Origin: Actinomycetota bacterium
Lineage (GTDB): Bacteria > Actinomycetota > Geothermincolia > Geothermincolales > RBG-13-55-18
DNA: 64,000 nt
Reading direction: 5' to 3'
NCBI GenBank assembly: GCA_013178005.1
Contig: JABLXL010000003.1
Span: 1 to 64,000 of the forward strand
In this document: piece after piece, positions 24,259 to 39,833 of the stretch
How the letters are laid out: the number at the start of each line of letters is the position of its first letter
How positions within the stretch are numbered: the first letter of the stretch is position 1
Program-made: the position numbers and the translations under genes
The notes under the pieces: generated by a model
Told to the model about the DNA's origin: nothing
Databases searched by the model: none
The model's input: only the letters and a program-made list of their open reading frames with translations

Positions 24259-26358
24259 ATGATCGGTCGGAACATGAGCGTAGCAAATGAGGGGGCACTG
24301 GATCCCCGCGGGCGGGAGACCGTATTACGCGTGGCTTTCATGCTCCTGATCCTGGGGCTGGCGCACCTTGACCGCTTCGGCGTGGACCTGGGGGCGGAAG
24401 TAAGGTACGCCCCGCTGTACGCGCTGGGCGCTGCCTACCTAATCTTCTCGGTGATAACCTACTACCTATACGAGACGCTGGGGCTCAAAGGCTCCTTGCG
24501 AGCCATCACCGGGGCGGCGGACATCGCCTTTTTCTGTGCCGCCCTGCATTTCTGCGGAGGCGTGGAAAGCTACCTCTTCCTCTTGTTGGGCGTCGCTCCC
24601 CTCATTGGAGGCATATACGATGGCTTCAGGGGAGCCCTTTACGCCTTCGTCTTATGCGCCCTCGGTTATGGCGTGGTGGCCCTACTGGACCCCTCGCATC
24701 CCGGTGGATACGAGCTAGCGCAGGCGCTCGCTTTCCGCTACGCTTACCTCGCGGGCGCCACGTCCGTGAACCTCTTCGTCATCGACCTGCTCCTCAAGGA
24801 CCGCAAGCGCTTGAAGGTCTTCTACGAGATAAGCGTCAGCTCGAGTAAGAGCCCCGCTCTTTACAACGTCCTCAAGGAGATAACCCAACGCCTGGCGGAA
24901 TTGACCAGGGCGGAGGTGGCCATGATCTTCCTTCACAACGAGAAGACGGGGATGCTGGAGCCCCAGCAGCCCTCGCTGGGCCTGGACTTCATGGCCACCG
25001 GAAAGCTCAGGGTCAGGGTCGGCGATGCGGGGGCGCTCAGCGACTGCTTCCGGGAGGGGAGGGCCGTTCTTATCCCCCGCAGCCTCTCCAGGGACACCGC
25101 CATCGCCCCCTTCCACCCCTCCTACGAGGTATTCGACCTCATCGCCTGCCCCCTTGCCGCCAGGGGGAAGAGCATCGGGGTCCTGGTTCTCGCCAACAAA
25201 CTCAACCGGCGGGGTTTCGTGCGCCGCGACCTTGAGCTGTTGGAGCTCATATCCCCCCATGTCTCGGTGTTTCTGGATAACGCGCTCCTGTACCGGCGCA
25301 GCGAGGAGAAAGTCGCCCAGCTCACCAGCCTTATAAGGGTGGTTGACGTGATAAACACCGTCGCCAACCTCGACCAGCTCTATAACCTCGCGCTGGACGT
25401 CATCAGGGGGCTTTTCGCGGCGGAGAAGGCCCTTATAAACATCGCTGATTACGATACCGGCCTCCTGGAGACGGTGCGCAGCTTCGGCTTCAGCCAGGAC
25501 TACGTGAGCCGCCACCTGAGCCATCCCTTCGAGACCATCAGGGACTGTTATGTGCTCGGCAACGACGATGCCTACCTGTGCGGCGATCTCGCCACCGATA
25601 CCCGCTGCCCCAACATGGCTGTGGATCCCCAGACGCGCTCCGTCCTCTGTGTGCCCATCCGCTCGGGAAACAAGATCTACGGCATCCTGCACATGGCCAG
25701 TCGCTACCAGGATGCCTTCGACGACGAGGACGCCACCCTCGCCAAGGCCATCGGGGAACAGATCGGCATGGCGGTGGAAAGGGCGAGGCTGTTCGAGGAG
25801 ATCTCGCGCCTCGCCATCACCGACGAACTGACAGGCCTGTACAACATCCGCCACCTCAAGCGCGTGCTCGGCGAGGAAGTCAAACGCTCCCTGCGTTACG
25901 AGCGGCCCCTGTCCTTCATCATGCTGGATATCGATTTCTTCAAGAACTACAACGACCGCCATGGCCACCTCCGGGGGGACGAGGTGCTGCGCCTGCTGGC
26001 AGGCTTGCTGCAGCAGAACACGCGCGACGTGGACTCCGTCTTCCGCTACGGGGGAGAGGAGTTCTCCGTGATCATACCCGAAGTCGCCAAGCAGGAGTCG
26101 CTGGCCATGGCCGAGCGCATCAGGCGCGTGATCCAGGACTACGTCTTCCCGTACGAAGAGGATCAGCCGGGCGGAAACCTCACCGTGAGTATGGGAGTGG
26201 CCAGCCTTCCCGGGGATGCCTTCGACGCGGAAGAGCTGATCGACAAGGCCGACCGCGCCCTCTATCACGCCAAGCAGTCGGGGCGCAACCGCGTGTGCGC
26301 CTATGACGAGGACTCCGACTACACTTTGCCCCGCGCCCACGGATCGACCGAGGAGTGA
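24259..26358 (+). CDS. Membrane-anchored GAF-GAF-GGDEF diguanylate cyclase
   Basis: A 699-aa signalling enzyme predicted to make c-di-GMP. The N-terminal about 180 residues contain five or six membrane helices. Two GAF-like domains follow (about 215-365 and 375-520), then GGDEF from about 525. The active-site motif is GGEEF (near residue 597) and an RxxD inhibitory site (RDVD) lies exactly five residues before it, so product inhibition is expected. The A-site region LDIDFFKNYNDRHGH is intact. The start is ambiguous between ATG 24259 and ATG 24274; ribosome sites are weak. The RsiG-like protein at 32717 is a possible reader of its product (inference). Confidence 0.88.
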   Translation: MIGRNMSVANEGALDPRGRETVLRVAFMLLILGLAHLDRFGVDLGAEVRYAPLYALGAAYLIFSVITYYLYETLGLKGSLRAITGAADIAFFCAALHFCGGVESYLFLLLGVAPLIGGIYDGFRGALYAFVLCALGYGVVALLDPSHPGGYELAQALAFRYAYLAGATSVNLFVIDLLLKDRKRLKVFYEISVSSSKSPALYNVLKEITQRLAELTRAEVAMIFLHNEKTGMLEPQQPSLGLDFMATGKLRVRVGDAGALSDCFREGRAVLIPRSLSRDTAIAPFHPSYEVFDLIACPLAARGKSIGVLVLANKLNRRGFVRRDLELLELISPHVSVFLDNALLYRRSEEKVAQLTSLIRVVDVINTVANLDQLYNLALDVIRGLFAAEKALINIADYDTGLLETVRSFGFSQDYVSRHLSHPFETIRDCYVLGNDDAYLCGDLATDTRCPNMAVDPQTRSVLCVPIRSGNKIYGILHMASRYQDAFDDEDATLAKAIGEQIGMAVERARLFEEISRLAITDELTGLYNIRHLKRVLGEEVKRSLRYERPLSFIMLDIDFFKNYNDRHGHLRGDEVLRLLAGLLQQNTRDVDSVFRYGGEEFSVIIPEVAKQESLAMAERIRRVIQDYVFPYEEDQPGGNLTVSMGVASLPGDAFDAEELIDKADRALYHAKQSGRNRVCAYDEDSDYTLPRAHGSTEE

Positions 26359-26584: not shown

Positions 26585-26662
26585 CGGGATGTGGCGCAGC
26601 TTGGTTAGCGCGCTTGACTGGGGGTCAAGAGGTCGCCGGTTCAAATCCGGCCATCCCGACCA
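26585..26662 (+). tRNA. tRNA-Pro (anticodon GGG)
   Basis: A complete cloverleaf: acceptor CGGGATG pairing with CATCCCG, D arm GCGC...GCGC, anticodon stem CTTGA/TCAAG with loop CTGGGGG (anticodon GGG), and T arm GCCGG-TTCAAAT-CCGGC. The discriminator A is followed by an encoded CCA (26660-26662). It reads CCC/CCU proline codons. A weak GGGGC/GCCCC stem with three T (26671-26698) may end the transcript. Confidence 0.95.
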
Positions 26663-27002
26663 AGAGCAGAGGGGCTTTCCGCGATGGATTGCCCCTTTCT
26701 CATCCCGTTTCCCACCGACAGATGGCCACCGGGTCTTATGGGAAAGGCGAGGTCCTGGTACGGCGCCCTCCGCTGCAGCGCCGATCCGCTCTATACCCAC
26801 GAGGTCGTGATCCTCACATCCAGATACCCCATGGCGGGAGATGCGTGCTAAAGTATCTGCAGGGAAGGTCCAGGCAGCGGCGCGCCATCGCGGCATCGGT
26901 ATATGAAAGAGACAGCGCTTAAACCCAGAAAAAGCCGGGCGCGGGTTTAAGGCCGGGGATGGCGGCGGTCGGGACGAAGGCTGAGCGATGCGGAGGTGTT
27001 GC
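26663..27002. other. Intergenic region with a 9-bp inverted repeat
   Basis: No gene is evident. An inverted repeat CTTAAACCC (26918-26926) and GGGTTTAAG (26943-26951), with 16 nt between arms, lies 50 bp before the phosphatidyltransferase gene and shares its half-site with the palindrome before rny. It could be an operator or a hairpin. Confidence 0.45.
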
Positions 27003-27611
27003 ATGATAAGAAAGAACCTGGCCAACTTCTTCACCTGCCTGCGCATCGTGCTCATACCCGTGGTCGTCTGGCTCATCTCCATTGCCTCAACGACCGAGGT
27101 CGACGCGGCCCACTACTGGGCCCTCGCCACCTTCATGTTCGCCGCTTCCACCGATTTCATAGACGGGCAGATAGCGCGCCGCACCGACACCATAAGCGAG
27201 TTCGGCAAGGTGGTCGACCCCCTGGCGGATAGGCTCCTGGTGATTTCGGTGCTGGTGTCCCTGATGTGGCGCCATTTCATACCCCTATGGATGGGGCTGC
27301 TCATCGTGAGCCGGGACGCCCTCATGCTCGTCGGCGCGCCGGTGGTGGGCATCAACGACAAGAGAGTGCGCGAACAACTCGCCGTGCACTGGACGGGGAA
27401 GCTTGCCACCGCCCTGCTCTTTACCGCCATATGCGCCTTCGTGCTCTGGAACCTGCCGGAACCGCAAGGGAACGCTTCATTCTTCGACCGCGTAAACCCG
27501 CTGGGCTTCGCCCTGTTCTGCGTGGGGATTGTGTTCTCCTACGTAAGCGGTTTCATCTACGTCCGCAGGGGTATAAAAATCTTAGGCGCGGACGCCGACC
27601 AAGGCGAGTGA
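27003..27611 (+). CDS. CDP-alcohol phosphatidyltransferase (PgsA-like)
   Basis: A 202-aa integral membrane enzyme that transfers a phosphatidyl group from CDP-diacylglycerol to an alcohol, probably glycerol 3-phosphate. The defining motif is complete: DG-x2-AR-x8-G-x3-D-x3-D (DFIDGQIARR, then FGKVVDPLADRL). Four or more hydrophobic segments flank it. The ATG at 27003 has GGAGGTG 5-6 nt upstream and replaces the earlier ATG at 26988. The exact acceptor alcohol cannot be read from the sequence. Confidence 0.88.
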   Translation: MIRKNLANFFTCLRIVLIPVVVWLISIASTTEVDAAHYWALATFMFAASTDFIDGQIARRTDTISEFGKVVDPLADRLLVISVLVSLMWRHFIPLWMGLLIVSRDALMLVGAPVVGINDKRVREQLAVHWTGKLATALLFTAICAFVLWNLPEPQGNASFFDRVNPLGFALFCVGIVFSYVSGFIYVRRGIKILGADADQGE

Positions 27612-27690
27612 CCTCGCCGTCCGTCCACCGGGCGGAGCGTGGTCCCGCGCCCGTGACCCAACCACTGGTACGATCCTGAGGAGGAACGCC

Positions 27691-28374
27691 ATGACCGTCG
27701 ACTACACCGTAGAGCGGCCGCTGGAGGAAGCGGTGCGCGTAAGCTGGCTCGGACACGCCATGTTCCTGCTGGAGGACGGAGCGGGAAACCGGCTGGTCAC
27801 CGACCCTTACGGTGAGGGCGTCGGGTACTCCCTCCCCAGCGTGGAGGCAGGCATAGTCCTGGTGAGCCACGATCACTTCGACCACGGAAACGTGAACCTG
27901 GTGAAGGGAAACCCGGTGGTGATAAGGGAGGCGGGAAGCCACGAGGCGGGAGGCATACCCATAACCGGGTTCTCCACCTTCCACGACGCCAGCGGGGGCA
28001 AGGAACGGGGCCAAAACATCGTTTATCGCTGGAAGATGCAGGGCCTGACCTTCGTGCATCTCGGAGACCTGGGGCACCCCCTTGACCCGGAGCTCGCGTC
28101 CGCACTTCAGGGCTCCGACGTTCTCTTCGTTCCCGTTGGCGGCACCTTCACCATCGACGACGCGCAGGCGGCCGCCCTGGTGCAAGAGCTGGCTCCGCGG
28201 GTGGCGGTGCCCATGCACTACCGTAACTCCGGCTGCTCATTCCCCATCCTCACCGAGGAGCCCTTCACCTCGCGCTTTACACGCGTGGAAAGGGTCGGGA
28301 AGTCGCCCGTTTACTTCGCGCCTGGAGAGCTTCCCGAGCCCACCTTAGTACTGGTGATGGATTTTCTCGCCTAG
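27691..28374 (+). CDS. MBL-fold metal-dependent hydrolase (UPF0173-like)
   Basis: A 227-aa metallo-beta-lactamase-fold protein of the short UlaG/UPF0173 type. The metal-binding motif is SHDHFDHGNV (HxHxDH), with further ligands in STFHDASGG, LGDLGHPLD and MHYRN. Proteins of this type hydrolyse phosphodiester or lactone bonds; the substrate is unknown. GAGGAACGCC precedes the ATG, and the gene is 20 bp upstream of the nucleotidyltransferase gene, so they may be co-transcribed. Confidence 0.8.
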   Translation: MTVDYTVERPLEEAVRVSWLGHAMFLLEDGAGNRLVTDPYGEGVGYSLPSVEAGIVLVSHDHFDHGNVNLVKGNPVVIREAGSHEAGGIPITGFSTFHDASGGKERGQNIVYRWKMQGLTFVHLGDLGHPLDPELASALQGSDVLFVPVGGTFTIDDAQAAALVQELAPRVAVPMHYRNSGCSFPILTEEPFTSRFTRVERVGKSPVYFAPGELPEPTLVLVMDFLA

Positions 28375-28394
28375 AGTCGGAGGGGCGCAGAGGC

Positions 28395-30893
28395 ATGAAA
28401 GCGGTGATAATGGCGGGAGGGCAGGGAACCAGGTTGCGTCCCCTCACCAGCAACCAACCCAAGCCCATGCTTCCGGTGGTCAACCGGCCCATGATGGAGC
28501 ATATCGTGAACCTGCTCCACCGCTGCGGATTTCGAGAGGCCGTGGTCACCCTCCAGTTCCTCCCCACCCTCATAAGCAATTACTTCGGTGACGGGGAGGA
28601 ATGGGGCGTTGCCATGCATTACTCCACCGAGTCCATACCCTTGGGCACGGCGGGAAGCGTCAAGAATTCCTCCTCCCTCCTTGACGACACTTTCCTGGTG
28701 ATAAGCGGGGACGCCCTCACCGATATCGACCTGAACCGGGTGGTGGATTTCCACCGTCGCTCTGGGGCCGTGGCCACCCTGACCCTTATAAGGGTGGAAA
28801 ACCCCCTGGAGTTCGGGATCGTGGTCACCGACCAGGAGGGGCGCATAGAGCGTTTCCTGGAGAAGCCCAACTGGGGCCAGGTTTTCAGCGACACCATCAA
28901 CACCGGCATCTACGTGCTCGAGCCGGAGGTGCTGGATTTCATCCCCGAGGACCGACCCTTCGATTTCTCCAAGGACCTTTTTCCCGCGCTGCTCGAGAAG
29001 GGGTACCCGCTTTACGGCTACGTGGCCGAGGGATACTGGTGCGACATCGGAAACTTCGAGCAGTACGTGGCGGCGCACCGCGATATCCTCGATCGCAGGG
29101 TCAACATCGACCCGCCCGGGTTCCGCATGGCCGAGAACATCTGGGTGGGGGAGGGAGTGGACATCGAGGAGGGCGCCGACTTGAGGGGCCCAATGGTCCT
29201 GGGGGACCACTGCAAGGTCGAGAGGGGGGCGGTAGTGCGCGAGTACAGCGTACTCGGCCACAACGTCGCCGTGAAAGGGGACAGCTTTGTGCACCGCGCC
29301 ATCGTCTACGATAATTCCTACATCGGCAACGGCTGCCACCTCCGGGGATGCGTGGTGGGAAAGAACTGTGACCTCAAGGGCAACGTGCGCCTCGAGGAGG
29401 GGGTGGTGGTGGGGGACGAGTGCCTCATCGGCGAGAACGTCCTCGTCAACCACGACGTGAAGATCTACCCCTTCAAAACGGTGGAGGCGGGCGCGACGGT
29501 CAACACCAGCATCATTTGGGAATCGAAGGGTCTGCGCACCCTGTTCGGGAAACGTGCTGTCTCCGGCATCATGAACATCGACATCACCCCTGAACAGGCC
29601 CTGCGCATCGCCATGGCCTACGGATCCGGGCTTCCCATGGGCACGACGGTGGTCACCTCCCGGGACGCCTCCCGCTCCGCCCGCACCATCAAGCGGGCGG
29701 TGATAACCGGCTTAAACTCCGCGGGCGTCAACGTCTCCGACCTCGAGATCTCCCCCTCCCCGGTGAACCGCTTCGCCATCAAGGCAGAGCGCGCGGTGGG
29801 CGGGGTGGACGTGCGCATCTCCGCCTTCGATCCCCAGTCCATAGAGATACGCTTTTTCGACGAGGAGGGCATAGACATCTCCGAGGGGAAACAGCGCGAC
29901 ATTGAGAAGGTCTTCTACCAGGCAAATTTTCGACGCGCCTTCGTGGACGAGATAGGTGCTATCATCTTCCCACCCCGGGTAATCGAGATGTACGCGAACT
30001 CGCTCCTGGAGCAGGTGGACCTGGAGTCCCTGCGCAATCGGCGTTTTCGCCTTGTGGTTGACTATGCGTACGGGAGTTGTAGCTCCATCCTCCCCTCCAT
30101 CCTGGGAAAAATGGGCTGTGACGTCCTGGGCCTCAACGCCTTCACCGACGAGAAAAAGGTGACCCTGGGCCAGGAGGAACTGGCCTCCTCCCTGCGAAAC
30201 CTCTCCCAACTGGTGAAGGCGTCCGAGGCGGAGCTAGGGATCATGCTGGACAATGCTGGGGAGAGGCTCTACCTCCTGGACGAGCAGGGAAGGCAGGTCC
30301 CGCCCCAGTCGGCGCTGCTTCTCTTCGTGAAGCTCTTGTCGGAGACGGGCTGGAAGGGCAGGATCGCCGTACCCGTGAGCATGACCTCACAGGTGGAGGC
30401 CATCGCGGGCGCTTACGGGAACGAGGTCGTGCGCACCAAGGTGAGCCGGAGCGAGCTCATGCGGGCCTCCCTTGACCGCGAGGTGATCTTCGCGGGGGCG
30501 GGGAGCGGAGGGTTCATCTTCCCCTCCTTCCTGCCCACCTACGACGCCATGGCGAGCACCGCCATCCTCCTCGACCGTCTCTGCGCCTACGGGAAGCCGC
30601 TCTCTGAGCTGGTGGACGGGCTTCCGCCGGTGCACCTGCTCTCGGAAGAGATACCCGCCTCCTGGGACCAAAAGGGCATGATCATGCGCAGGCTGGTAGA
30701 GGAGGGAGGCGACGGTGAGCTCGAGCTTATCGACGGGGTTAAGGTAAACCTGGACGGCGGGGCCTGGATACTGGTGCTTCCCGATCCGGATGAGCCATCC
30801 CTGCACCTGATATGCGAGGCCGAAGACGACACGCGCGCGGCGCGCATCATCGGCGATTACGCGAAGAGGATACTGGACATGGTCTCGGGGTAA
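28395..30893 (+). CDS. Nucleotidyltransferase/phosphomannomutase-like fusion (mannose-1-P guanylyltransferase type)
   Basis: An 832-aa three-part protein. Residues 1-235 are a sugar-phosphate nucleotidyltransferase (MAGGQGTRLRPLTSNQPKPM, the G-x-G-T-R-x3-P/K signature). Residues about 250-365 are left-handed beta-helix hexapeptide repeats. The remainder is a phosphohexomutase-like region. In that region the catalytic serine loop (normally TASHNP) reads RISAFDPQS, and the metal loop (normally DGDxDR) reads DNAGERL, so mutase activity is doubtful; it may be regulatory. Similar long proteins occur in cyanobacteria and actinobacteria. The likely role is GDP- or NDP-sugar supply for cell-surface glycans. 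Confidence 0.85.
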   Translation: MKAVIMAGGQGTRLRPLTSNQPKPMLPVVNRPMMEHIVNLLHRCGFREAVVTLQFLPTLISNYFGDGEEWGVAMHYSTESIPLGTAGSVKNSSSLLDDTFLVISGDALTDIDLNRVVDFHRRSGAVATLTLIRVENPLEFGIVVTDQEGRIERFLEKPNWGQVFSDTINTGIYVLEPEVLDFIPEDRPFDFSKDLFPALLEKGYPLYGYVAEGYWCDIGNFEQYVAAHRDILDRRVNIDPPGFRMAENIWVGEGVDIEEGADLRGPMVLGDHCKVERGAVVREYSVLGHNVAVKGDSFVHRAIVYDNSYIGNGCHLRGCVVGKNCDLKGNVRLEEGVVVGDECLIGENVLVNHDVKIYPFKTVEAGATVNTSIIWESKGLRTLFGKRAVSGIMNIDITPEQALRIAMAYGSGLPMGTTVVTSRDASRSARTIKRAVITGLNSAGVNVSDLEISPSPVNRFAIKAERAVGGVDVRISAFDPQSIEIRFFDEEGIDISEGKQRDIEKVFYQANFRRAFVDEIGAIIFPPRVIEMYANSLLEQVDLESLRNRRFRLVVDYAYGSCSSILPSILGKMGCDVLGLNAFTDEKKVTLGQEELASSLRNLSQLVKASEAELGIMLDNAGERLYLLDEQGRQVPPQSALLLFVKLLSETGWKGRIAVPVSMTSQVEAIAGAYGNEVVRTKVSRSELMRASLDREVIFAGAGSGGFIFPSFLPTYDAMASTAILLDRLCAYGKPLSELVDGLPPVHLLSEEIPASWDQKGMIMRRLVEEGGDGELELIDGVKVNLDGGAWILVLPDPDEPSLHLICEAEDDTRAARIIGDYAKRILDMVSG

Positions 30894-30947
30894 GTGAGAC
30901 GGGGTATGATAGGGGAAAACGGGCGGGCGACAAGAAGGAGGAAAGAG

Positions 30948-31475
30948 GTGGAATTCGAGGCGGACAGCGCTCTTCTCGTCATCGATATGCTCAACGATTT
31001 TATCGAGGAGGGAGGAGCGCTGCTGGTTCCCGGGGCGAAGCGCATCGTGCCGCGCATCGCGGAGATAATCGACGGAGCGCGTGAAAGCGGAGTCCCCGTC
31101 GTTTACGTAACCGACAGCCACCGTGAGGACGACCATGAGTTCAGGCACTGGCCGCCCCACGCACTAACCGGCAGTTGGGGCGGCGAGGTGGTGAAGGAGC
31201 TGGCGCCTCGTGCCGGCGACTACGTGGTGCCCAAACGGAGGTACAGCGCCTTTTTCGGCACCGATCTCGACAACTACCTGAGGGAGATGGGCGTGAAAAC
31301 CCTTTACCTTACGGGGGTGCTGACCAACATCTGCGTCTACGCCACGGCCCTTGACGCCTCCATGCGCAACTATAGCGTCAAGGTCTTCAGGGACGCCGTG
31401 GCGTCGCTTAGCGAGGAAACGGACAGCTTCATCTTCCGGCAACTGGAGGAAGTGCTGCAAGCGGAGCTCCTATAG
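30948..31475 (+). CDS. Cysteine hydrolase, isochorismatase/nicotinamidase family
   Basis: A 175-aa protein with the family triad: Asp (LLVIDMLNDF, Asp13), Lys (VPKRRYSAF) and Cys (LTNICVYATAL). The size and the HREDDHEFRHWPPHAL metal-site-like segment fit nicotinamidase/pyrazinamidase-type amidohydrolases, though the substrate is not certain. The start is GTG 30948, with GGAGG at 30937-30941 six nt upstream; the ATG at 30906 has no such site. It follows the nucleotidyltransferase gene by 54 bp. Confidence 0.85.
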   Translation: MEFEADSALLVIDMLNDFIEEGGALLVPGAKRIVPRIAEIIDGARESGVPVVYVTDSHREDDHEFRHWPPHALTGSWGGEVVKELAPRAGDYVVPKRRYSAFFGTDLDNYLREMGVKTLYLTGVLTNICVYATALDASMRNYSVKVFRDAVASLSEETDSFIFRQLEEVLQAELL

Positions 31476-31749
31476 GCCTTCGGGCGTGGGGGACCGTGTG
31501 AAGCCTCACAGCCGACGCCCCGGTTATATCCGTCACGGTAATGGCGGTTTCTTTGAGGGGCGGAGAGGGCACGCAACAGCCGATGCGAGGTGAGCATAAA
31601 ACGAGATAGCGATGGCGTTGGAGGTCTGCCTCGTGTCCGGAAGTCCCTCAACCGGCGATCCGAGAGAAGCAAAGACGAAAAGAGATCGCGTTGGGAACCG
31701 AAACGTGTTGGGAAACTGTATAGCAGCGATCCGAGGGGAGTAAAACGAG

Positions 31750-32637
31750 ATGGAACGATCACGGACCGCCTCATGGCGCCTGATCCTCACTCCGCCCGCA
31801 GGCGGAGCCTCGAACATGGCCTTGGACCAGGCACTCCTGGAATCCGCAGGCGAGGAAGGCTTCGTACCCAGCCTGCGCTTCTATCGTTGGGAACCTCCCG
31901 CGCTTTCCCTCGGACGCTTCCAGCCCATAGAGGAGATAGACATGGAGGCATGCGCCGCCGAGGGCATCGAGACGGTGAGGAGGCCCACGGGCGGCAAGAG
32001 CATTCTGCACCTGGACGATTTCACCTACAGCCTGGTGTTGCCGGAGGAATGGGGCCTTCCCAGGAGCGTGGAAGAGGCCTACGTCGTCATCTGCGCAGGC
32101 ATCATCGCCGCGCTGCGTCACCTGGGCGTGGAGGCGGTAGTGCAGTGCCGAGCCGGAGAGGACTACCGCGCGTCGGGAGGGGCCTGTTTCGCCGCCGTCA
32201 CCAGGGCCGACCTTGTTCACGCGGGACGCAAACTCTGCGGAAGCGCGCAGGTTAGGAGGAGGGGAGCCGTCCTTCAGCACGGATCCCTCTTCTTAAAGGA
32301 CCGCTCGGAAACCATGTTCCGCCTACTGGCCTTCCGCTCGCATGAGGAACGCCAGGCCGCCCTCGAAGCTTACCGTTCCCGCTGCGCAACCCTCGAGGAG
32401 GCGGGCTGCACGGCTGCCTGGGATGAGCTGGGGGAGGCCTTCCGGAAGGGATTCGCTGGAGCCTTCGAAGTGGACATAATGCCCGGCGATCTCACCTCCG
32501 CGGAAAGAGAACGCTGGCGGCAGCTCGAGGAAGCCTATCGATCGCCGGACTGGCTGAAAAACGCCGAGGCGCGTTCCTTGCCTGCTCTCCCTCATGAACG
32601 GATGAAGGCGGCAAGCCCGAGGTCGCCGGCGCGCTGA
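31750..32637 (+). CDS. LipM-like octanoyltransferase / lipoate-protein ligase family
   Basis: A 295-aa BPL/LplA-fold protein. RRPTGGKSILH (near 77-87) is the lipoate-binding motif. GGACFAAVTRADLVHAGRKL (near 143-162) has a Cys146 matching the acyl-carrying cysteine of LipM, followed by CGSAQVRRRGAVLQHGSLFL. It would transfer octanoate from acyl carrier protein to GcvH-type lipoyl domains. The ATG follows a GGGGAG box. No lipoyl-protein genes are in the window. The presence of the Cys favours LipM over an LplA ligase. Confidence 0.8.
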   Translation: MERSRTASWRLILTPPAGGASNMALDQALLESAGEEGFVPSLRFYRWEPPALSLGRFQPIEEIDMEACAAEGIETVRRPTGGKSILHLDDFTYSLVLPEEWGLPRSVEEAYVVICAGIIAALRHLGVEAVVQCRAGEDYRASGGACFAAVTRADLVHAGRKLCGSAQVRRRGAVLQHGSLFLKDRSETMFRLLAFRSHEERQAALEAYRSRCATLEEAGCTAAWDELGEAFRKGFAGAFEVDIMPGDLTSAERERWRQLEEAYRSPDWLKNAEARSLPALPHERMKAASPRSPAR

Positions 32638-32716
32638 ACCAGTACGGCGATAGAGGAACGGCACGCATTCTGCTAAAATGGCATTGAGCTATATTCCATC
32701 TTAAGGAGGGTCTTGG

Positions 32717-33025
32717 ATGAGCGGGGAAGGCAAGCAGCCCACGAGCGTTCCTCCTCACGAGGTGTATATAGACTACACCAGCAAGAGCGACGAGGAGCTC
32801 CGGGCAATCCTGCAGGAACTGTTGAAGGAGGAGAGCAAGGTCTCTTACCAGCGGCGGGTTCTGCATGGAAAGATAGACATACTTCGGGCTGAGCTGGTCA
32901 GGCGCAAGAAAGCCGGCATCGCGGAAGGAAAGACCCTCGTCAGCGACGAGGAGATCAACCGCCTCACGGAGATCCTGGCCGGGGAGGCTTTGGGCGCGAA
33001 CCGAAACGACCCCACCGTCGACTGA
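32717..33025 (+). CDS. RsiG-like protein with a single c-di-GMP-binding signature
   Basis: A 102-aa all-helical, charged protein. Residues 39-54 fit the pattern E-x3-S-x2-R-x3-[Q/H]-x3-D (Glu39, Ser43, Arg46, His50, Asp54). This is the signature of RsiG, the c-di-GMP-dependent anti-sigma factor of WhiG in Streptomyces, except that His replaces Gln. Streptomyces RsiG has two copies in one chain; here there is one, as described for the Rubrobacter protein that acts as a homodimer. The gene has an AAGGAGGG box and precedes the FHA and FtsR-type genes. No WhiG-like sigma factor lies in the window. Assignment rests on the motif, size and helical character. Confidence 0.6.
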   Translation: MSGEGKQPTSVPPHEVYIDYTSKSDEELRAILQELLKEESKVSYQRRVLHGKIDILRAELVRRKKAGIAEGKTLVSDEEINRLTEILAGEALGANRNDPTVD

Positions 33026-33183
33026 CGCTCCGAAGTGGCCTAAAGGTAAGGCTTTCATTTAAATTCATATGCACGCATAATAATCGGTGGAGGCTAATGG
33101 CGGAGGCAAGCCCGGGCGGCGGTGTGGCGCGAAAGGCAGATGTTGACGCCGCTATGTAAAGCATGGTGAGGAGGTAGGTGCGC

Positions 33184-33657
33184 TTGTACTGCAACCTCTG
33201 TGGTTTCGAAAACCCGGACGGCAGCCTCTTCTGCTCCCGTTGCGGCGCCAAGATGGAGGTACAGGGAGAAAGCGACGGCAGCACCGTCGGCCTCCCCCCC
33301 GTGGAGAGCGAACTGGACGAGGAGGTGGAGATCGCTCCGCCCACGGAGACCCTCAAGCGGGGCATGGGCCTCATGGTGATAAAGAAGGGTCCCGACGCGG
33401 GCATGACCTTCACCCTTGACCGAGACCTGGTGACTATCGGCAGGCATCCGGAAAGCGACATCTTCCTGGACGACATCACCGTCTCGCGCAGGCACGCCGA
33501 GATAAGCAGAAACCGCTCCGTCTTCACCTTGAAGGACACCGGCTCCTTGAACGGCACTTACCTCAACCGGGAACGCATAGAATCCGCCGTGCTCGAGAAC
33601 GGCGATGAGATACAGATCGGGAAGTACAGGCTCCTCTTTTTCTCGGCTCCTGACTGA
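33184..33657 (+). CDS. Zinc-ribbon FHA domain protein (GarA/OdhI-like context)
   Basis: About 157 aa. An N-terminal zinc ribbon (CNLCGFENPDGSLFCSRCG) is followed by an acidic linker with a Thr (PPTETLKRG) and an FHA domain. The phosphothreonine-binding residues are in GRHPESDIFL, VSRRHAEI and GSLNGTYLN. TTG 33184 is favoured: AGGAGGT lies 8 nt upstream, whereas GTG 33178 is only 2 nt from it. In actinobacteria a Ser/Thr-kinase-regulated FHA protein (GarA/OdhI) is encoded next to an FtsR-like MerR regulator, as here. The zinc ribbon differs from classical GarA. Confidence 0.8.
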   Translation: MYCNLCGFENPDGSLFCSRCGAKMEVQGESDGSTVGLPPVESELDEEVEIAPPTETLKRGMGLMVIKKGPDAGMTFTLDRDLVTIGRHPESDIFLDDITVSRRHAEISRNRSVFTLKDTGSLNGTYLNRERIESAVLENGDEIQIGKYRLLFFSAPD

Positions 33658-33804
33658 AGCAGGCTTAGGCCTGCCGTCTCGCCGCACGCCCTGGCCGGTG
33701 ACTGCGGGAGAGATGGACAAGCCGATGGGAAAGGGAGAGCCTGGGGCTGAACCTTCACGAGAGGTCCGCCCCAAGCTGAACGGAACGGAGAGAGTGGACG
33801 GGGA

Positions 33805-34542
33805 ATGGTTATGGATGGCGTCAAAGAGAAGATGGGCATCGGGGAGCTGTTGAAATCCCTCAAGGGGGAATTCCCGGACCTTACCATCTCCAAGATAAGA
33901 TTCCTGGAAAGCGAGGGCTTGCTCTCGCCGGAACGCACGCCCTCCGGGTACCGCAAGTTCAGCCAGGCGGACGCGCAGCGCCTCAGGTTCATCCTCAAGC
34001 TTCAGCGCGAGAAATACCTTCCCCTCAAGGTCATCCGCGAGAAGATCAACGAGCTGGAGAGCGGCAAGGCGCGCGCGGGCGACCTGGTGCCGGGGATGTC
34101 CGGCTCCCTGGAGGTGGGGGAGGACATGGCCGCATACGATGACACTACGCTTCTGCGCGAGGAAGCCCCTTCCGCCCTGGAGGTCAGCCCCTCTTTCGTG
34201 TCTACCCTGGAGGAATACGGCCTCGTCCATGCCCGGCAGGGAGACGACGGGCCCTTCTTCGACAAGGAGGACGTGAAGATACTGCGCATCGCGAGGGAGT
34301 TCTCCCGATACGGGTTCGAACCGCGTCACATGCGCATGTACGAGAACCTGACCGACCGCGAGGCCATGGCTTTCGAGCAGATCGTCGCCCCGGCGTTGAT
34401 GTCCAAGGACCCCGAGGTGAAACGCCGGGCCCTGGACAACCTTATGCAGCTCGTCAACCTCTCGCGAGAGCTGAAGGACCTCCTGCTTAAGAACCGGGTC
34501 AAGGAGCACTTCGTCAAGGCCGGCCAGCCCGTGCCCTTCTGA
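33805..34542 (+). CDS. MerR-family regulator, FtsR-like
   Basis: A 245-aa protein with a MerR helix-turn-helix: GELLKSLKGEFPDLTISKIR, then FLESEGLLSPERTPSGYRKF. A long helical C-terminal region contains a second, degenerate MerR-like winged helix (GLVHARQGDDGPFFDKEDVK). This double layout, and its position beside an FHA gene with a DUF151 gene nearby, match the actinobacterial FtsR/Rv1828 type, which in Corynebacterium activates ftsZ. Control of cell division here is inferred by homology. Starts at 33805 and 33811 are both possible. Confidence 0.82.
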   Translation: MVMDGVKEKMGIGELLKSLKGEFPDLTISKIRFLESEGLLSPERTPSGYRKFSQADAQRLRFILKLQREKYLPLKVIREKINELESGKARAGDLVPGMSGSLEVGEDMAAYDDTTLLREEAPSALEVSPSFVSTLEEYGLVHARQGDDGPFFDKEDVKILRIAREFSRYGFEPRHMRMYENLTDREAMAFEQIVAPALMSKDPEVKRRALDNLMQLVNLSRELKDLLLKNRVKEHFVKAGQPVPF

Positions 34543-34544
34543 CG

Positions 34545-35045
34545 GTGGAAAAACCAAGCCGGGAAACCCGTTTTATCGCGGATCGCATGCTGGGCAGGCT
34601 GGCGCGCTATCTCCGCCTCCTGGGTTACGACGTCGAATACCCACCCCCAGGGCCTGACTCCGGTCTCATCGCGCGCGCCCGGTCGGAAGGCAGAGTTCTC
34701 CTCACCCGGGATCGGGAGATAATAGACCGCGTGGGGGGAGGAGCGCCCGAGGTGGTGGAGATAGCCTCCGAGGCGGTCCTGGACCAGGTGGAGCAGCTCC
34801 GCGCCGAAGGCTGGCTGACCGCGCGCATGCCCCCTCGCTGTGGCGAGTGCAACGCACCTCTGGAGTGTATGCCCCGTTGGGAAGCTATGCACCTGGTCCC
34901 TCCCTTCGTGCTCGCGGTGCAAGTTCGTTACGCGTGGTGCGGCAACTGCAACATCGTGCTCTGGGAGGGCACCCACTGGGAGTATTTTCATTCCGCCGTC
35001 TACGCGAAGGCTGGCGGTTTGACACCTCCCGAAAACGGCGAATAG
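34545..35045 (+). CDS. Mut7-C RNase domain protein
   Basis: A 166-aa protein. The N-terminal half is a PIN-like Mut7-C domain: FIADRMLGRLARYLRLLGYD with its acidic residue, then RVLLTRDREI. A zinc ribbon follows (CGECNAPLEC and CGNCN), ending in LWEGTHWEYF. Such proteins are predicted ribonucleases. The start is GTG 34545, only 2 bp after the FtsR-like gene stop, so the two are probably co-transcribed and coupled. Confidence 0.82.
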   Translation: MEKPSRETRFIADRMLGRLARYLRLLGYDVEYPPPGPDSGLIARARSEGRVLLTRDREIIDRVGGGAPEVVEIASEAVLDQVEQLRAEGWLTARMPPRCGECNAPLECMPRWEAMHLVPPFVLAVQVRYAWCGNCNIVLWEGTHWEYFHSAVYAKAGGLTPPENGE

Positions 35046-35289
35046 AATGCATAAAAGCGAAGCCCGGCACCTTCGGCCTGTGATAACCCTTTCCTGCTGG
35101 ACGTGGGGATCATGGCCAAGAGGAAGCGGGGAGCGCGGAAAGCGACCCCTGTGATATCGCCATGGATAGATCGCTTGCAAGACCTTTCCAGGCAACGTCG
35201 CCGGCGGCGAATTACCTCTCGCGTATATAAACACGGGAGTCCGGACCGCGGGGCGGCCTGGTTTTCGGTACCTTCCTTGGAGGTGCGGG

Positions 35290-37086
35290 ATGATGTTCTT
35301 CTCCGAGCTTCAGGAAAAGAGAATCCTTGATCGCGCCGGCCGCCAGGTGGGCAAGCTCTACGACGTTTGCATGAGCGTCAACGGCGGTCTGCCCCAGAGC
35401 TCTTTCCTGGTGATATCCCGCTCTCGCCGGGGAAGAAGAGAGACAGCCACCGTTCCCTGGAGCTGGGTGACCTCCATCGAGCCCGACGCCGTGATCCTGG
35501 GGAGGGACGCCGAGGAGGTATGGGGAAGCGAGCTCGAGCCCTCGGGGCTCCTCTTGGGTCGCTACCTGCTCGACCGCCAGATAGTGGACCTGCACGGCAA
35601 CAAGGTGGTGAGGGTTAACGACTTGCGCCTGGCGGAATTCGACCACACCCTGCGGCTCACCGGCGTCGACGTGAGTCAGAGGGCCCTTCTCCGGCGCCTC
35701 GGCCTGGAGAAAACCCTGGGTTCCCTGCTCAGGCTGGTGGGAATCGATCTCCCCGAGAGCACCATCCCCTGGAGCTTCGTGGCCCCCCTCGGGATCAGGC
35801 AATCCGACCTGAGGCTCACCGTATCCCAGAAGCAACTCCTCGAGCTTCACCCCACCGATATCGCGGACATCATAGAACAGCTTGACCCGGAGCACCGCGA
35901 GCGGCTGCTTGATCTCCTGGGCACGCTGACGGCGGCGGAATCCCTCTCCGAGGTGGATCCCGCCAAGCAGGCTGACGTCATCGAGGACCTCGCGGAGACC
36001 AAGGCCTCCAACCTCCTCGAGGTGATGCCTCCCGACGAGGCGGCGGATATCCTCTCCATGCTCCCACGCGATAAGGCCGAGAGGCTTCTCAACATCATGG
36101 GGGTGAGGGAGTCAGAGGTCATCCGAGAGCTCCTCGGCTACCGCGAGGACACGGCGGGGGGAAGGATGACCCCCGAGTTCGTCGCCGTGCCCAGCTACTA
36201 CGACGCCGGGGAGACCATGTCCTACCTGCGGCAGAACGCGCCGGACGCGGAGACCCTTTACTACACTTATGTGGTTGACGACGAGGGCAGACTTAAGGGA
36301 GTGATATCCCTGCGCGACCTCCTTACCGTCTCCAGGGACCGTCGCGTGGAGGATTTCATGCGCCGCGACGTTATCTCCGTCAACGTCAACGACGACCAGG
36401 AGACGGTGGCCGACGTCATGAGCCGCTACAATTTCCTGGCCCTTCCGGTGGTGGACGATAAAAACACGCTAAAGGGCATCATCACCGTGGACGACATGAT
36501 CGACGTGATCAGGGAGGAGGCCTTGGAGGACATCTCACACCTGGGAGGTCTGGAACTGGCGGAGCCGGGGGCGATCTCCTCCCTGCGCAACAGGTTGCCA
36601 TCCATCACGATCACTTTCCTGGGCGGGCTGGCGACGGCGCTCCTCCTCAGCGCCTTCCGCGAGCGCATCCTCCCCATCATCGCCATTTCCTTCTTCATCC
36701 CCCTGGTGCTGAGGGCGGCCCAGGATATGAGTATCGTCTCTCACGCCGTGGTGCTGGAGGAGATAGGGGGCAAGGATATAGGTGTGCGCGAGATCTCCGC
36801 CATCGCCTGGCGCGAAATGCGCGTGGTGGCGCTGATCTCGCTCGGGATTGCGTTGCTGGGAGGGGCGGTCTCGGGGCTATGGGAGGGTTACCCGCGCCTC
36901 GGTCTCGCCGTAGGGCTGTCCCTCCTGTCGGCCGTCTGCCTGGGGGCCACTCTGGGCATCGCCATCCCCATCGTGACCCGGCGGGTGCGTGGGGAGTTCG
37001 GGTACACTCAAGCCCGTTTCTCCTTCCTGCTCGTGGGCATCACGGCGCTCGCCGTCTACATGGGCATAGCACTGGCGATCCTGTGA
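35290..37086 (+). CDS. MgtE-like membrane protein with N-terminal PRC-barrel domains
   Basis: A 598-aa protein. Residues 1-170 look like two PRC-barrel-like halves (GRQVGKLYDVCMSVNG; DLHGNKVVRVNDLRL). An MgtE N-domain (about 185-285, helical repeats such as LEVMPPDEAADILSMLPRDK), two CBS domains (about 290-410) and five membrane helices (about 438-598) follow. Canonical MgtE features of the pore are missing: the second helix lacks GGNxGxQ (reads RAAQDMSIVSHAVVL), and the position of the Mg-coordinating Asp in the last helix appears to be Gly. Mg2+ transport is therefore uncertain. GGAGGTG precedes ATG 35290. Confidence 0.8.
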   Translation: MMFFSELQEKRILDRAGRQVGKLYDVCMSVNGGLPQSSFLVISRSRRGRRETATVPWSWVTSIEPDAVILGRDAEEVWGSELEPSGLLLGRYLLDRQIVDLHGNKVVRVNDLRLAEFDHTLRLTGVDVSQRALLRRLGLEKTLGSLLRLVGIDLPESTIPWSFVAPLGIRQSDLRLTVSQKQLLELHPTDIADIIEQLDPEHRERLLDLLGTLTAAESLSEVDPAKQADVIEDLAETKASNLLEVMPPDEAADILSMLPRDKAERLLNIMGVRESEVIRELLGYREDTAGGRMTPEFVAVPSYYDAGETMSYLRQNAPDAETLYYTYVVDDEGRLKGVISLRDLLTVSRDRRVEDFMRRDVISVNVNDDQETVADVMSRYNFLALPVVDDKNTLKGIITVDDMIDVIREEALEDISHLGGLELAEPGAISSLRNRLPSITITFLGGLATALLLSAFRERILPIIAISFFIPLVLRAAQDMSIVSHAVVLEEIGGKDIGVREISAIAWREMRVVALISLGIALLGGAVSGLWEGYPRLGLAVGLSLLSAVCLGATLGIAIPIVTRRVRGEFGYTQARFSFLLVGITALAVYMGIALAIL

Positions 37087-37137
37087 TCTTTCAGCCGGTG
37101 CGACTTGTGTCCCCTGTGCGGTGAACCAGGAGATACC

Positions 37138-37237
37138 CTTTTTCAACCCTCGGCCCTTCCGCTATGCGGAAATGCTCGCCTTAATGGGGCGAAGGGGGGT
37201 GCGGGATGCGCTTTTTCAACCCTCGGCCCTTCTGCTA
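37138..37237. repeat. 27-bp direct repeat upstream of the carboxypeptidase gene
   Basis: Copies at 37138-37164 and 37211-37237, 73 bp apart, differ at one position (CCCTTCCGCTA versus CCCTTCTGCTA). They flank a short G-rich segment and end 13 bp before the ATG at 37250, so they may affect translation or transcription of that gene. Confidence 0.75.
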
Positions 37238-37249
37238 CACTCCTCTTTG

Positions 37250-38659
37250 ATGGATAACAGCAACGACAACGGCCTCACGGACGCACCGTATCCGCACGTC
37301 GATCTTACCAGCGAGGAGAGGCGCAGGCTGACGGAGAGGCGCATCAAGGAATTGCGCGCCCGCAAACGCCGCCAGCAGCGGGCGGCAAGGCGCAGGCGGC
37401 GCATGATCGTCTCGCTATCCTGCATCTTCCTGGCGCTCCTTTTTCTTATGGCCGCGGTATCCTCCCTGGCCTCGAGCGGGGAGGACCAGCACTACCTCTC
37501 CGCGCGCCTTTCCGCCTCCAATATCGGCTCCCTCGACGAATTGTCCAAACCCTCCGGGAGCGTCACCGAACCGTCCATACCGGCCGTGGCCGCCGCCCTG
37601 CTCGACCCCGCCACCGGGGACATGCTGTACCTCAAGAACGCCGACCAACCCCTGCCCATGGCCTCCACCACCAAGATAATGACCGGAATACTGGCCCTGG
37701 AGAAATCCTCCCTGGGCGAGACCACCACTATCAGCGACGGCGCCAGCGCGGTGGGGGAGTCCTCGGCCTGGCTTGAGAAAGGGGAGACCCTCACGGTGGA
37801 GCAGCTCCTGTACGCGGTGCTCGTGCAGTCGGCCAACGACGCAGCCGCGGCCCTGGCGGAACACGTGGCGGGCTCCCAGGAGGCGTTCGTCGCGCTCATG
37901 AACGAGAAAGCGGCGGAGCTTGGCCTTTCCAACACCCATTTCGCCAATCCCCACGGACTGGACGCTCCCGGCCACTACACTTCCGCGCGCGACCTTGCGA
38001 ACCTCGCCGCCTACGCTATGCGCAACCCGGATTTCCGCAAGATCGTGTCTGCCAGGACGTTCCAGCTCCCATGGCCCGGCCATCCCGGTCCGCGCGTCTT
38101 CGAGAACCACAACAAGCTGCTCAAACTCTATCCATATGCAACGGGGATCAAAACCGGATACACCTCGCAGGCGGGGAAATGCCTGGTGGCATCGGCGGAG
38201 AAGGACGGGCGGGAGCTGGTCTCGGTCATCCTCAACGGAGGCGAGAGCTACTGGGACCAGACCATCTCGCTCATGGAATACGGATTCAACGATTTCGCCC
38301 GCGTGGAATACGCCTACGCGGGACAACCCCTCGCGGAGGTTGAGGTGGGCGACTTTCCCCGCAAACGAGTTAACGCCGTGGGGTCGCGAGACCTGGTCTT
38401 CACCGTGCGCAGGGACAGGCTCGACGCGTACCGCGAGGCCGACATCAGCTGGCTGAACTGGGTCCCCTATCCCATCGCGGCGGGGCAGGAGGTGGGCTAC
38501 CTTTCGCTGGGCGAAGAGGGTGCAGGAGAACAGAGGATATCCCTGGTGAGCGACGCTTACCGCAATCGTCCGTCCTTTCCGGTCCGCGTCCTCGCTTTCA
38601 TTGCCGCCGCCTTCTCGCGCCTGCTCGCCTGGTTGAAATGGCTGGTTCCGGGCTGGTAG
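37250..38659 (+). CDS. D-alanyl-D-alanine carboxypeptidase (peptidase S11)
   Basis: A 469-aa penicillin-binding protein. A basic cytoplasmic leader precedes a membrane helix (SLSCIFLALLFLMAAVSSLA, about residues 52-71). The catalytic motifs are SxxK (STTK, near 139), SxN (SAN, near 194) and KTG (near 301). A C-terminal PBP5-like domain and a hydrophobic/amphipathic end (LLAWLKWLVPGW) follow. It removes the terminal D-Ala from muropeptides outside the membrane. ATG 37250 is chosen because the upstream frame would run through the direct repeat. Confidence 0.92.
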   Translation: MDNSNDNGLTDAPYPHVDLTSEERRRLTERRIKELRARKRRQQRAARRRRRMIVSLSCIFLALLFLMAAVSSLASSGEDQHYLSARLSASNIGSLDELSKPSGSVTEPSIPAVAAALLDPATGDMLYLKNADQPLPMASTTKIMTGILALEKSSLGETTTISDGASAVGESSAWLEKGETLTVEQLLYAVLVQSANDAAAALAEHVAGSQEAFVALMNEKAAELGLSNTHFANPHGLDAPGHYTSARDLANLAAYAMRNPDFRKIVSARTFQLPWPGHPGPRVFENHNKLLKLYPYATGIKTGYTSQAGKCLVASAEKDGRELVSVILNGGESYWDQTISLMEYGFNDFARVEYAYAGQPLAEVEVGDFPRKRVNAVGSRDLVFTVRRDRLDAYREADISWLNWVPYPIAAGQEVGYLSLGEEGAGEQRISLVSDAYRNRPSFPVRVLAFIAAAFSRLLAWLKWLVPGW

Positions 38660-38695
38660 CGCCTGGGTTCCGCATGATGACGGAGGTGTGTTGAA

Positions 38696-39268
38696 ATGTC
38701 ACCGCGAAGGCCGCCGGAGGTTCCGGGGCCCGTGCTGTTGGACGAGGCGGAGATCGCCCGGCGTGTCGGCGAGCTCGGCGAGGACATCAACGAGTATTAC
38801 CATGGCGAGCGCATCGATGAGATAACGGTGGTGAGCGTGCTCAAGGGGGGCTTCATCTTCCTCGCCGATCTCATCCGTCACCTTCGCGTGGATCTCAGGC
38901 TGGACTTCATGGCCATATCGAGTTACCACGACGCGGATGACCGCACACGCGGGGTGCGTATCGTCAAGGACCTTTCGGAGAGCATCTACCGGCGGCACGT
39001 TCTGCTGGTGGAGGACATCATCGATACCGGCCTTACCCTCAGCTTCATCTTGCGTAACTTAAGGGATCGCGAGCCGGCGGATATACGGCTATGCACCCTG
39101 CTGGATCGCGCCGCCAGGCGCATCGCCCCCCTGGAGCTGCACCACCGCGGGTTCGAGGTAGGGGACGAGTACCTGGTGGGCTACGGCCTCGACTACCGGC
39201 AGTTCTGGCGAAACCTTCCCAGCATCCATGTGCTTGAGGATGAGCGGGCGGTCGAGGCCATCTCGTGA
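38696..39268 (+). CDS. hpt: Hypoxanthine phosphoribosyltransferase
   Basis: A 190-aa purine salvage enzyme. The PRPP-binding motif is LLVEDIIDTGLTLSF and the flexible loop is FMAISSYHDADDRTRGVRIV. VSVLKGGFIFLADLIRHL, which positions pyrophosphate, and the C-terminal VGYGLDYRQFWRNLP complete the family pattern. It makes IMP/GMP from hypoxanthine/guanine and PRPP. It starts 36 bp after the carboxypeptidase gene with GGAGGTG upstream. Confidence 0.95.
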   Translation: MSPRRPPEVPGPVLLDEAEIARRVGELGEDINEYYHGERIDEITVVSVLKGGFIFLADLIRHLRVDLRLDFMAISSYHDADDRTRGVRIVKDLSESIYRRHVLLVEDIIDTGLTLSFILRNLRDREPADIRLCTLLDRAARRIAPLELHHRGFEVGDEYLVGYGLDYRQFWRNLPSIHVLEDERAVEAIS

Positions 39269-39306
39269 ACCGTTTTGTCTCTCGGGTAAAATAGGAGTTG
39301 TCCGCA

Positions 39307-39333
39307 TTGACAGGCGAAAGTGGGTGCTATAGT
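39307..39333 (+). promoter_or_regulatory. Candidate promoter of the DUF151 gene
   Basis: TTGACA at 39307-39312 is followed by TATAGT at 39328-39333 (15-bp spacer), or TAGTTT at 39330-39335 (17-bp spacer). Either would start transcription just upstream of the DUF151 ribosome site. Confidence 0.5.
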
Positions 39334-39356
39334 TTAACCTTGAAACTAAGGATGTG

Positions 39357-39833
39357 ATGGCGATGGTGGAGTTGCAATTAATAGGCGTCAGGGTTGAACT
39401 TCCGGCCAACCAGCCGATCGTGCTGCTCAAGGAGAGGACGGGCGACCGTTTCCTTCCCATCTGGATCGGGGCCTTCGAGGCCACGGCCATCGCCTTCGCC
39501 CTCCAGGGCATCGAGACGGCGCGGCCCATGACCCACGACCTCATGAAAAACATCATGGACCAGTTGGGGATAACCATGCAGCAAGTGGTCATCTCGGACC
39601 TCAGGGAAGGAACCTTCTACGCCGACATCACGCTGGAATACGAGGGCAAGCCCTTCGTGATCGACGCGCGTCCCAGCGACGCCATAGCGCTGGCCGTCCG
39701 CACCGGGGTCACCATATACTCGGACGAGCACGTGCTCAATGAGGCGAGCGTCTTCATCCAGAGCGACGAGGAGGACGAGATAGAGCGCTTCCGCGATTTC
39801 CTCAAGGACGCCAAGCCCGAGGATTTCATGTAG
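39357..39833 (+). CDS. DUF151 (bifunctional nuclease family) protein
   Basis: About 158 aa; a DUF151 domain fills residues 1-130: VELQLIGVRVELPANQPIVL, LKERTGDRFLPIWIGAFEAT, then TFYADITLEYEG and IDARPSDAIALAVR. The acidic C-terminal tail (SDEEDEIERFRDFLKD) resembles a UVR-like helix seen in some members. Some plant and actinobacterial relatives have nuclease activity. In Mycobacterium the homologue is beside the FHA and FtsR-like genes, which here lie 5 kb upstream. GTG 39354, ATG 39357 and ATG 39363 are all possible starts. Confidence 0.88.
   Translation: MAMVELQLIGVRVELPANQPIVLLKERTGDRFLPIWIGAFEATAIAFALQGIETARPMTHDLMKNIMDQLGITMQQVVISDLREGTFYADITLEYEGKPFVIDARPSDAIALAVRTGVTIYSDEHVLNEASVFIQSDEEDEIERFRDFLKDAKPEDFM

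What the first reader, a model, noticed from the sequence alone, without database searches (positions are those of the whole stretch)
32717..33025. RsiG-like anti-sigma candidate with one c-di-GMP signature
The 102-aa protein carries E-x3-S-x2-R-x3-H-x3-D at residues 39-54, matching the c-di-GMP signature known for RsiG (E-x3-S-x2-R-x3-Q-x3-D) apart from His for Gln. A single motif per chain is the form described for Rubrobacter, where two subunits sandwich c-di-GMP. The window also encodes a GGDEF enzyme with an intact active site (24259-26358). If real, a c-di-GMP-controlled anti-sigma switch exists in a deep actinobacterial lineage and is encoded next to the FHA/FtsR division regulators.
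Basis: partly seen in the sequence, partly recalled or inferred. Interest (0 to 1): 0.75.

Follow-up and report, generated by a model that had tools for sequence, protein, structure and literature searches.

The report
Single-motif RsiG anti-sigma factor
The small gene encodes a clear member of a known family of proteins that use the signal molecule c-di-GMP to hold back one transcription switch protein (WhiG); it comes from a little-studied branch of Actinobacteria, where it has kept the same two neighbour genes and coexists with a second, unrelated brake that probably acts on the same switch.

Summary
The 102-aa protein (32717-33025 +) carries E39-x3-S43-x2-R46-x3-H50-x3-D54, hits Pfam RsiG (68.8 bits, cut-off 27) and matches the solved RsiG chains by sequence. 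It is a single-motif RsiG. His for Gln is no departure: it is published, and a His-type RsiG (Conexibacter) was shown to bind c-di-GMP. The genome (a MAG in the same genus as Ca. Solincola daggyaiensis, class Geothermincolia) encodes a clear WhiG with all three sigma2 c-di-GMP-contact residues.

(2) 18 of 25 single-motif genomes, this one included, also encode FlgM, the classical anti-sigma-28; flgM carries a WhiG-type promoter 21-33 bp before its start across the family. No twin-motif genome sampled has FlgM. (3) A c-di-GMP phosphodiesterase (HD-GYP) gene has a perfect WhiG promoter in one genus.

Verdict: new member of a known kind in a lineage where it was not described, with an apparently undescribed two-anti-sigma arrangement. 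Binding of c-di-GMP and WhiG remains untested.

The parts
32717..33025 (+). rsiG: single-motif RsiG-type anti-sigma factor, 102 aa; motif E39 S43 R46 H50 D54 at window 32831-32878
   Evidence: Pfam RsiG 68.8 bits; solved RsiG chains; one long helix 25-70 with pLDDT above 90 over most of it
33178..33657 (+). zinc-ribbon plus FHA protein (GarA-like), conserved neighbour of single-motif rsiG
   Evidence: Pfam FHA 81.2 bits, Zn_Ribbon_1 28.8 bits; same order in 79 of 80 rsiG loci
33805..34542 (+). ftsR-type MerR regulator, conserved neighbour
   Evidence: Pfam MerR_1 55.7 bits; same order in 79 of 80 loci
31750..32637 (+). LplA/LipB-type ligase, upstream neighbour kept in Geothermincolia and most Coriobacteriia loci
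   Evidence: Pfam LplA-B_cat 117 bits
24259..26358 (+). GAF-GAF-GGDEF diguanylate cyclase, GGEEF with RxxD I-site; possible but not specific source of c-di-GMP
   Evidence: Pfam GGDEF 159 bits; no tie to rsiG beyond lying 6 kb away

Best explanation
The gene encodes RsiG, the c-di-GMP-armed anti-sigma factor, in its single-motif form. Two chains pair antiparallel through the helix of residues 25-70; the two E-S-R-H-D motifs hold a c-di-GMP dimer; the loaded dimer sequesters the genome's WhiG (contig C81) away from RNA polymerase when c-di-GMP is high. When c-di-GMP falls, WhiG is released and transcribes genes with TAAA-N14-16-GCCGATAA promoters. In this family these include flgM, whose product is a second anti-sigma that most likely gives negative feedback on the same WhiG, a B-box-like zinc protein gene, a STAS protein gene and, in one genus, an HD-GYP phosphodiesterase that would lower c-di-GMP further. 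Shown: family membership, single motif, WhiG partner with contact residues, conserved locus, promoter placement. Inferred: dimer, c-di-GMP binding, WhiG binding, direction of the switch, FlgM acting on WhiG.
For: Pfam RsiG and PDB RsiG hits; the five motif residues invariant in 38 relatives. WhiG at C81 scores 326 bits to S. venezuelae WhiG against 175 to E. coli FliA, and has K51, G55, R56 equal to Sv K57, G61, R62 and to the Rubrobacter WhiG residues; it sits behind comM/yifB, dprA and a xerC-type gene. Outside the class RsiG and WhiG go together: 18 both, 7 neither, 3 RsiG with only weaker FliA-type hits, 0 WhiG alone. The WhiG promoter pattern is enriched, 34 sites against 3 for the reversed pattern in 17 genomes. 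flgM start regions have it within 2 mismatches in 14 of 15 cases, 0.31 expected; within 1 mismatch in 10 of 15, 0.015 expected. HD-GYP gene with perfect promoter in G006 and G010. A His-type RsiG binds c-di-GMP (PMC8325347).
Against: No binding data. A second FliA-type sigma (C26) exists in this genome and lacks the contact residues, so FlgM here could serve that one. Sister orders keep WhiG without RsiG, and most of them keep the K-G-R contacts, so those residues alone do not prove RsiG binding. The own flgM promoter has 2 mismatches and the own FlgM score is just over cut-off (26.4 bits, cut-off 25). Fold comparison to the PDB gave nothing, as expected for a lone helix.
Confidence: 0.88

Rival explanations
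1. It is an RsiG homologue that controls a sigma factor other than WhiG, for example the second FliA-type sigma on contig C26.
For: The genome holds two FliA/WhiG-class sigmas over the curated cut-off.
Against: The C26 sigma lacks the K, G, R contact residues (R, R, Y instead), and most rsiG-bearing genomes of the family have no such second sigma, while all have WhiG.
Confidence: 0.04
2. RsiG in this lineage works with its neighbours FHA and FtsR in cell division control rather than, or besides, holding WhiG.
For: The rsiG-FHA-ftsR order is kept in 79 of 80 loci over several classes and in all nine further single-motif loci at least as far as FHA, more than gene drift would leave.
Against: The motif and the WhiG partner are fully conserved; twin-motif RsiGs that are proven WhiG anti-sigmas lie elsewhere; in sister orders FHA and FtsR persist without RsiG. 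Co-localisation may only mean co-expression.
Confidence: 0.06
3. Chance match of a coiled-coil protein to a short motif.
For: Motif of five residues in a charged helix.
Against: Profile E-value 3e-19, invariant motif in 38 relatives, conserved locus.
Confidence: 0.005

Closest known systems
Single-motif RsiG of Rubrobacter radiotolerans and Conexibacter woesei (PDB 7lq2, 7lq3, 7lq4; PMC8325347)
   Same: Size, one E-x3-S-x2-R-x3-[Q/H]-x3-D motif per chain, WhiG in the same genome with the same sigma2 contact residues; His variant as in Conexibacter.
   Different: Class Geothermincolia instead of Rubrobacteria or Thermoleophilia; genome also encodes flagella and FlgM; predicted promoter targets differ in part (flgM, B-box-like protein, Fe-alcohol dehydrogenase), with HD-GYP and type IV pilin genes shared in kind.
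Twin-motif RsiG of Streptomyces venezuelae (PDB 6pfj, 6pfv)
   Same: Same family and motif; same sigma partner family.
   Different: Twin-motif proteins are about twice as long, have two motifs, act as monomers, lie at other loci (0 of 10 next to FHA/FtsR), and no genome sampled that has one encodes FlgM.
FlgM, anti-sigma-28
   Same: Also a small anti-sigma for a FliA/WhiG-type sigma; present in this genome (contig C32, Pfam PF04316).
   Different: Unrelated sequence, no c-di-GMP motif; the 2013 survey found no FlgM in actinobacteria that have WhiG (PMC4255298); a 2023 survey reports it lost only in later classes (PMC10746217).

Membership tests
RsiG (PF22802) | Profile match over curated cut-off | tested here: met
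   68.8 bits, cut-off 27
RsiG (PF22802) | E-x3-S-x2-R-x3-[Q/H]-x3-D c-di-GMP motif | tested here: met
   Residues 39-54; His form published as functional
RsiG, single-motif type | Exactly one motif and no second helix equivalent to alpha5 | tested here: met
   One motif in 102 aa; one long helix 25-70 and a short one 77-89
RsiG, single-motif type | WhiG sigma in the same genome | tested here: met
   C81:5597-6427, 297 bits to FliA_WhiG, cut-off 189.6; 326 bits to Sv WhiG
RsiG, single-motif type | Partner WhiG keeps the sigma2 residues that touch c-di-GMP (Sv K57, G61, R62) | tested here: met
   K51, G55, R56; not exclusive, since some WhiGs without RsiG also keep them
RsiG, single-motif type | Antiparallel homodimer | not testable with these tools
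   Only the monomer could be predicted
RsiG | Binds c-di-GMP and then WhiG | not testable with these tools
   Needs purified proteins
WhiG | FliA/WhiG-class sigma closer to WhiG than to FliA, with actinobacterial whiG neighbours | tested here: met
   326 against 175 bits; behind yifB/comM, dprA and a xerC-type gene
FlgM (PF04316) | Profile match over curated cut-off | tested here: met
   Own copy 26.4 bits, cut-off 25, weak; relatives up to 46 bits in the class

The most novel reading that the evidence does not exclude
In this deep, partly flagellated actinobacterial lineage one sigma factor, WhiG, is held by two unrelated anti-sigmas: FlgM, made from a WhiG promoter as negative feedback, and RsiG, armed by c-di-GMP. 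This would be the state from which later Actinobacteria lost FlgM and kept RsiG, so that the c-di-GMP switch first served the motile or piliated life and only later sporulation.
Probability: 0.45. Interest if true: 0.7.

Novelty: new member of a known kind. Interest (0 to 1): 0.5.

Why it matters
The 2021 study found single-motif RsiG in five genomes of two classes and argued that it is the ancestral form. Here the single-motif gene turns up in many more basal lineages (Geothermincolia, Coriobacteriia, Aquicultor, Subteraquimicrobium and others), nearly always at the same locus, whereas the twin-motif gene never lies there. That is independent, positional evidence for the ancestral claim. The coexistence with FlgM makes a concrete question testable: did RsiG take over from FlgM as the brake on the flagellar-type sigma when Actinobacteria gave up flagella?

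Tried and rejected
Foldseek of the predicted monomer against the PDB gave no match with E below 1; a lone helix is not informative, so this is neither for nor against. NCBIfam has no model for it. Search for WhiG promoters in the window found 2 sites with 2 mismatches, 1.7 expected by chance, so no target is claimed in the window. The rsiG start region itself has no such promoter in most relatives. Flagellin genes lack the WhiG consensus within 330 bp, so direct control of flagellin is not claimed. The protein in the rsiG slot of sister orders was tested as a decayed RsiG and gave no convincing profile match (hhalign probability 16%). The idea that loss of RsiG frees the K-G-R residues is only weakly supported: 4 of 10 RsiG-lacking genomes changed one of them.

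Full report
Observation. The ORF at 32717-33025 (+) encodes 102 aa and starts with ATG behind AAGGAGGG. Residues 39-54 read ESKVSYQRRVLHGKID, exactly the motif reported. Pfam gives RsiG (PF22802) at 68.8 bits against a cut-off of 27; phmmer finds the four solved RsiG chains, E 1.7e-11 to 8e-10; a profile of 38 relatives finds only those four at E below 0.01. All 38 relatives hit the same Pfam family.

The His. The founding paper on single-motif RsiG (PMC8325347) says that Gln is often replaced by His in the first motif, that His can make the same stacking contact, and that the His-type RsiG of Conexibacter binds c-di-GMP (Kd 25 uM alone, 1.7 uM with WhiG). In the 22 single-motif proteins read from profile-search loci the residue is always His. 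In the wider set (78 loci read) it is also always His, but that search pattern contained His, so this second count is biased.

Organism. The nearest named relative is Candidatus Solincola daggyaiensis, whose contig of 27,191 bases matches in length and RsiG sequence the genome listed as same genus; NCBI places Solincola in class Candidatus Geothermincolia. The genome held is 3.61 Mb in 98 contigs, 97% complete.

Partner. The genome has 12 sigma-70 region 2 matches, two of them FliA/WhiG class. The one on C81 scores 326 bits to S. venezuelae WhiG and 175 to E. coli FliA. It keeps K51, G55 and R56, the equivalents of Sv K57, G61, R62, which touch c-di-GMP; the Rubrobacter WhiG aligned has them too (YSPLVKYAAGRV). 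It lies behind yifB/comM, dprA and a xerC-type gene, consistent with the local synteny of whiG noted in PMC4255298. The second, on C26, has R, R, Y at those places and is an unlikely partner.

Distribution. Of 59 genomes sampled in the phylum, 25 have a single-motif and 12 a twin-motif RsiG. Within the order every genome whose ftsR locus was assembled has RsiG; the two without a hit (G008, G017) also lack ftsR in the assembly. Thirteen genomes of other orders of the same class have no RsiG but do have WhiG. Outside the class RsiG and WhiG go together (18 both, 7 neither, 3 RsiG with weaker FliA-type hits only, 0 WhiG alone; Fisher P = 1e-4, not corrected for shared descent).

Locus. In 79 of 80 loci from the species collection, rsiG is followed by the zinc-ribbon FHA gene and ftsR on the same strand; the exception ends at a contig end. 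These loci carry titles from Solincola, Geothermincola, Coriobacteriia, Anaerosomatales, Aquicultor, Subteraquimicrobium, Solirubrobacterales and others. All nine single-motif loci found outside the class by the Pfam profile have the FHA gene downstream, seven also ftsR within the stretch held; none of ten twin-motif loci has either. The paper does not mention this linkage. The positional conservation supports the view that single-motif is ancestral. In sister orders that lack RsiG, the slot between the lplA-type gene and FHA holds an unrelated protein of about 60-70 aa.

FlgM. FlgM (PF04316) is found in 26 of 31 genomes of the class and in four single-motif genomes outside it, but in no twin-motif genome sampled. 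The own copy is weak (26.4 bits, cut-off 25). In 14 of 15 flgM genes whose start could be set, the 150 bp upstream hold a TAAA-N14-16-GCCGATAA site with at most 2 mismatches (0.31 expected from dinucleotide shuffles), and in 10 of 15 with at most 1 (0.015 expected); in the 13 cases from the order it ends 21-33 bp before the start. Most genomes of the family have no second FliA-type sigma over 190 bits, so FlgM there most likely acts on WhiG. The own genome has two such sigmas and stays ambiguous. No paper in the library holds WhiG, FlgM and RsiG together among the 20 listed of 24.

Regulon. Perfect sites number 34 in 17 genomes against 3 for the reversed pattern. Genes with a site (allowing any base at the second position of the -10) in two or more genomes: a B-box-like zinc protein in six genomes; an Fe-alcohol dehydrogenase in five; a protein with repeated C-x2-C motifs in three; flgM, a STAS protein, a PAS/GAF histidine kinase, a lipoprotein beside a tad-type cluster, type IV pilin, and a GAF-GAF-HD-GYP protein in two each (Pfam). 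HD-GYP and pilin recall the Rubrobacter regulon. An HD-GYP under WhiG would degrade c-di-GMP and so disarm RsiG further; this step is inference. The genome encodes flagellin copies and other flagellar genes, but the flagellin start regions lack the WhiG consensus.

Structure. AlphaFold2 with 38 sequences gives one helix 25-70 and a short helix 77-89, mean pLDDT 79.5, above 90 across the motif. A dimer or complex could not be run. Foldseek gave nothing useful.

Conclusion. A genuine single-motif RsiG with its WhiG. The protein itself is a new member of a known kind. What is fresh is the breadth of the single-motif form, its fixed place beside FHA and ftsR, and its coexistence with a WhiG-promoter-driven FlgM.

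Noticed in passing
L298-L310 (sister orders of Geothermincolia), between the lplA-type gene and FHA: An unrelated protein of about 60-70 aa (SKIYIELxELSSKQRxAVLGLVKDxGFxPEEI) fills the rsiG slot in all orders that lack RsiG; no Pfam match. Often preceded by another small unknown protein (MTDKDVERNVRSST...).
   Followed up: partly
L267 (C23:84001-104000), 5' leaders of the two flagellin genes; also L271, L272, L273, L274, L275, L277, L278: A conserved leader of about 175-190 nt (GTTCARGGAAGGRCGGTGATGCC ... TCAAGGAGGATGAT) precedes flagellin in eight genomes; no Rfam match; consensus fold has little covariation. Possibly a CsrA/FliW-type control site (a FliW-like gene is on C48).
   Followed up: partly
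G000 C23:95179-95586 and 96868-97275 (outside the window, same contig): Two flagellin genes in tandem with identical starts and a shared leader, about 62 kb from rsiG, with fliD, fliS, fliF and fliG nearby.
   Followed up: no
L091, C26:9961-10680: A second FliA-type sigma, 45% identical to WhiG, near a CheY-like gene; found in only some relatives and without the c-di-GMP contact residues.
   Followed up: partly
L083, C2:66256-68927: The gene for the B-box-like zinc protein, with a perfect WhiG promoter, is divergent from two FHA genes, one FhaA-like.
   Followed up: no
window 26988-39833: pgsA, FHA, ftsR and a DUF151-type gene lie in one run; from memory this recalls the Mycobacterium pgsA2-garA-ftsR-DUF151 region, which has no rsiG.
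   Followed up: no
window 26585-26659: A tRNA gene (Rfam RF00005, 66.6 bits).
   Followed up: no
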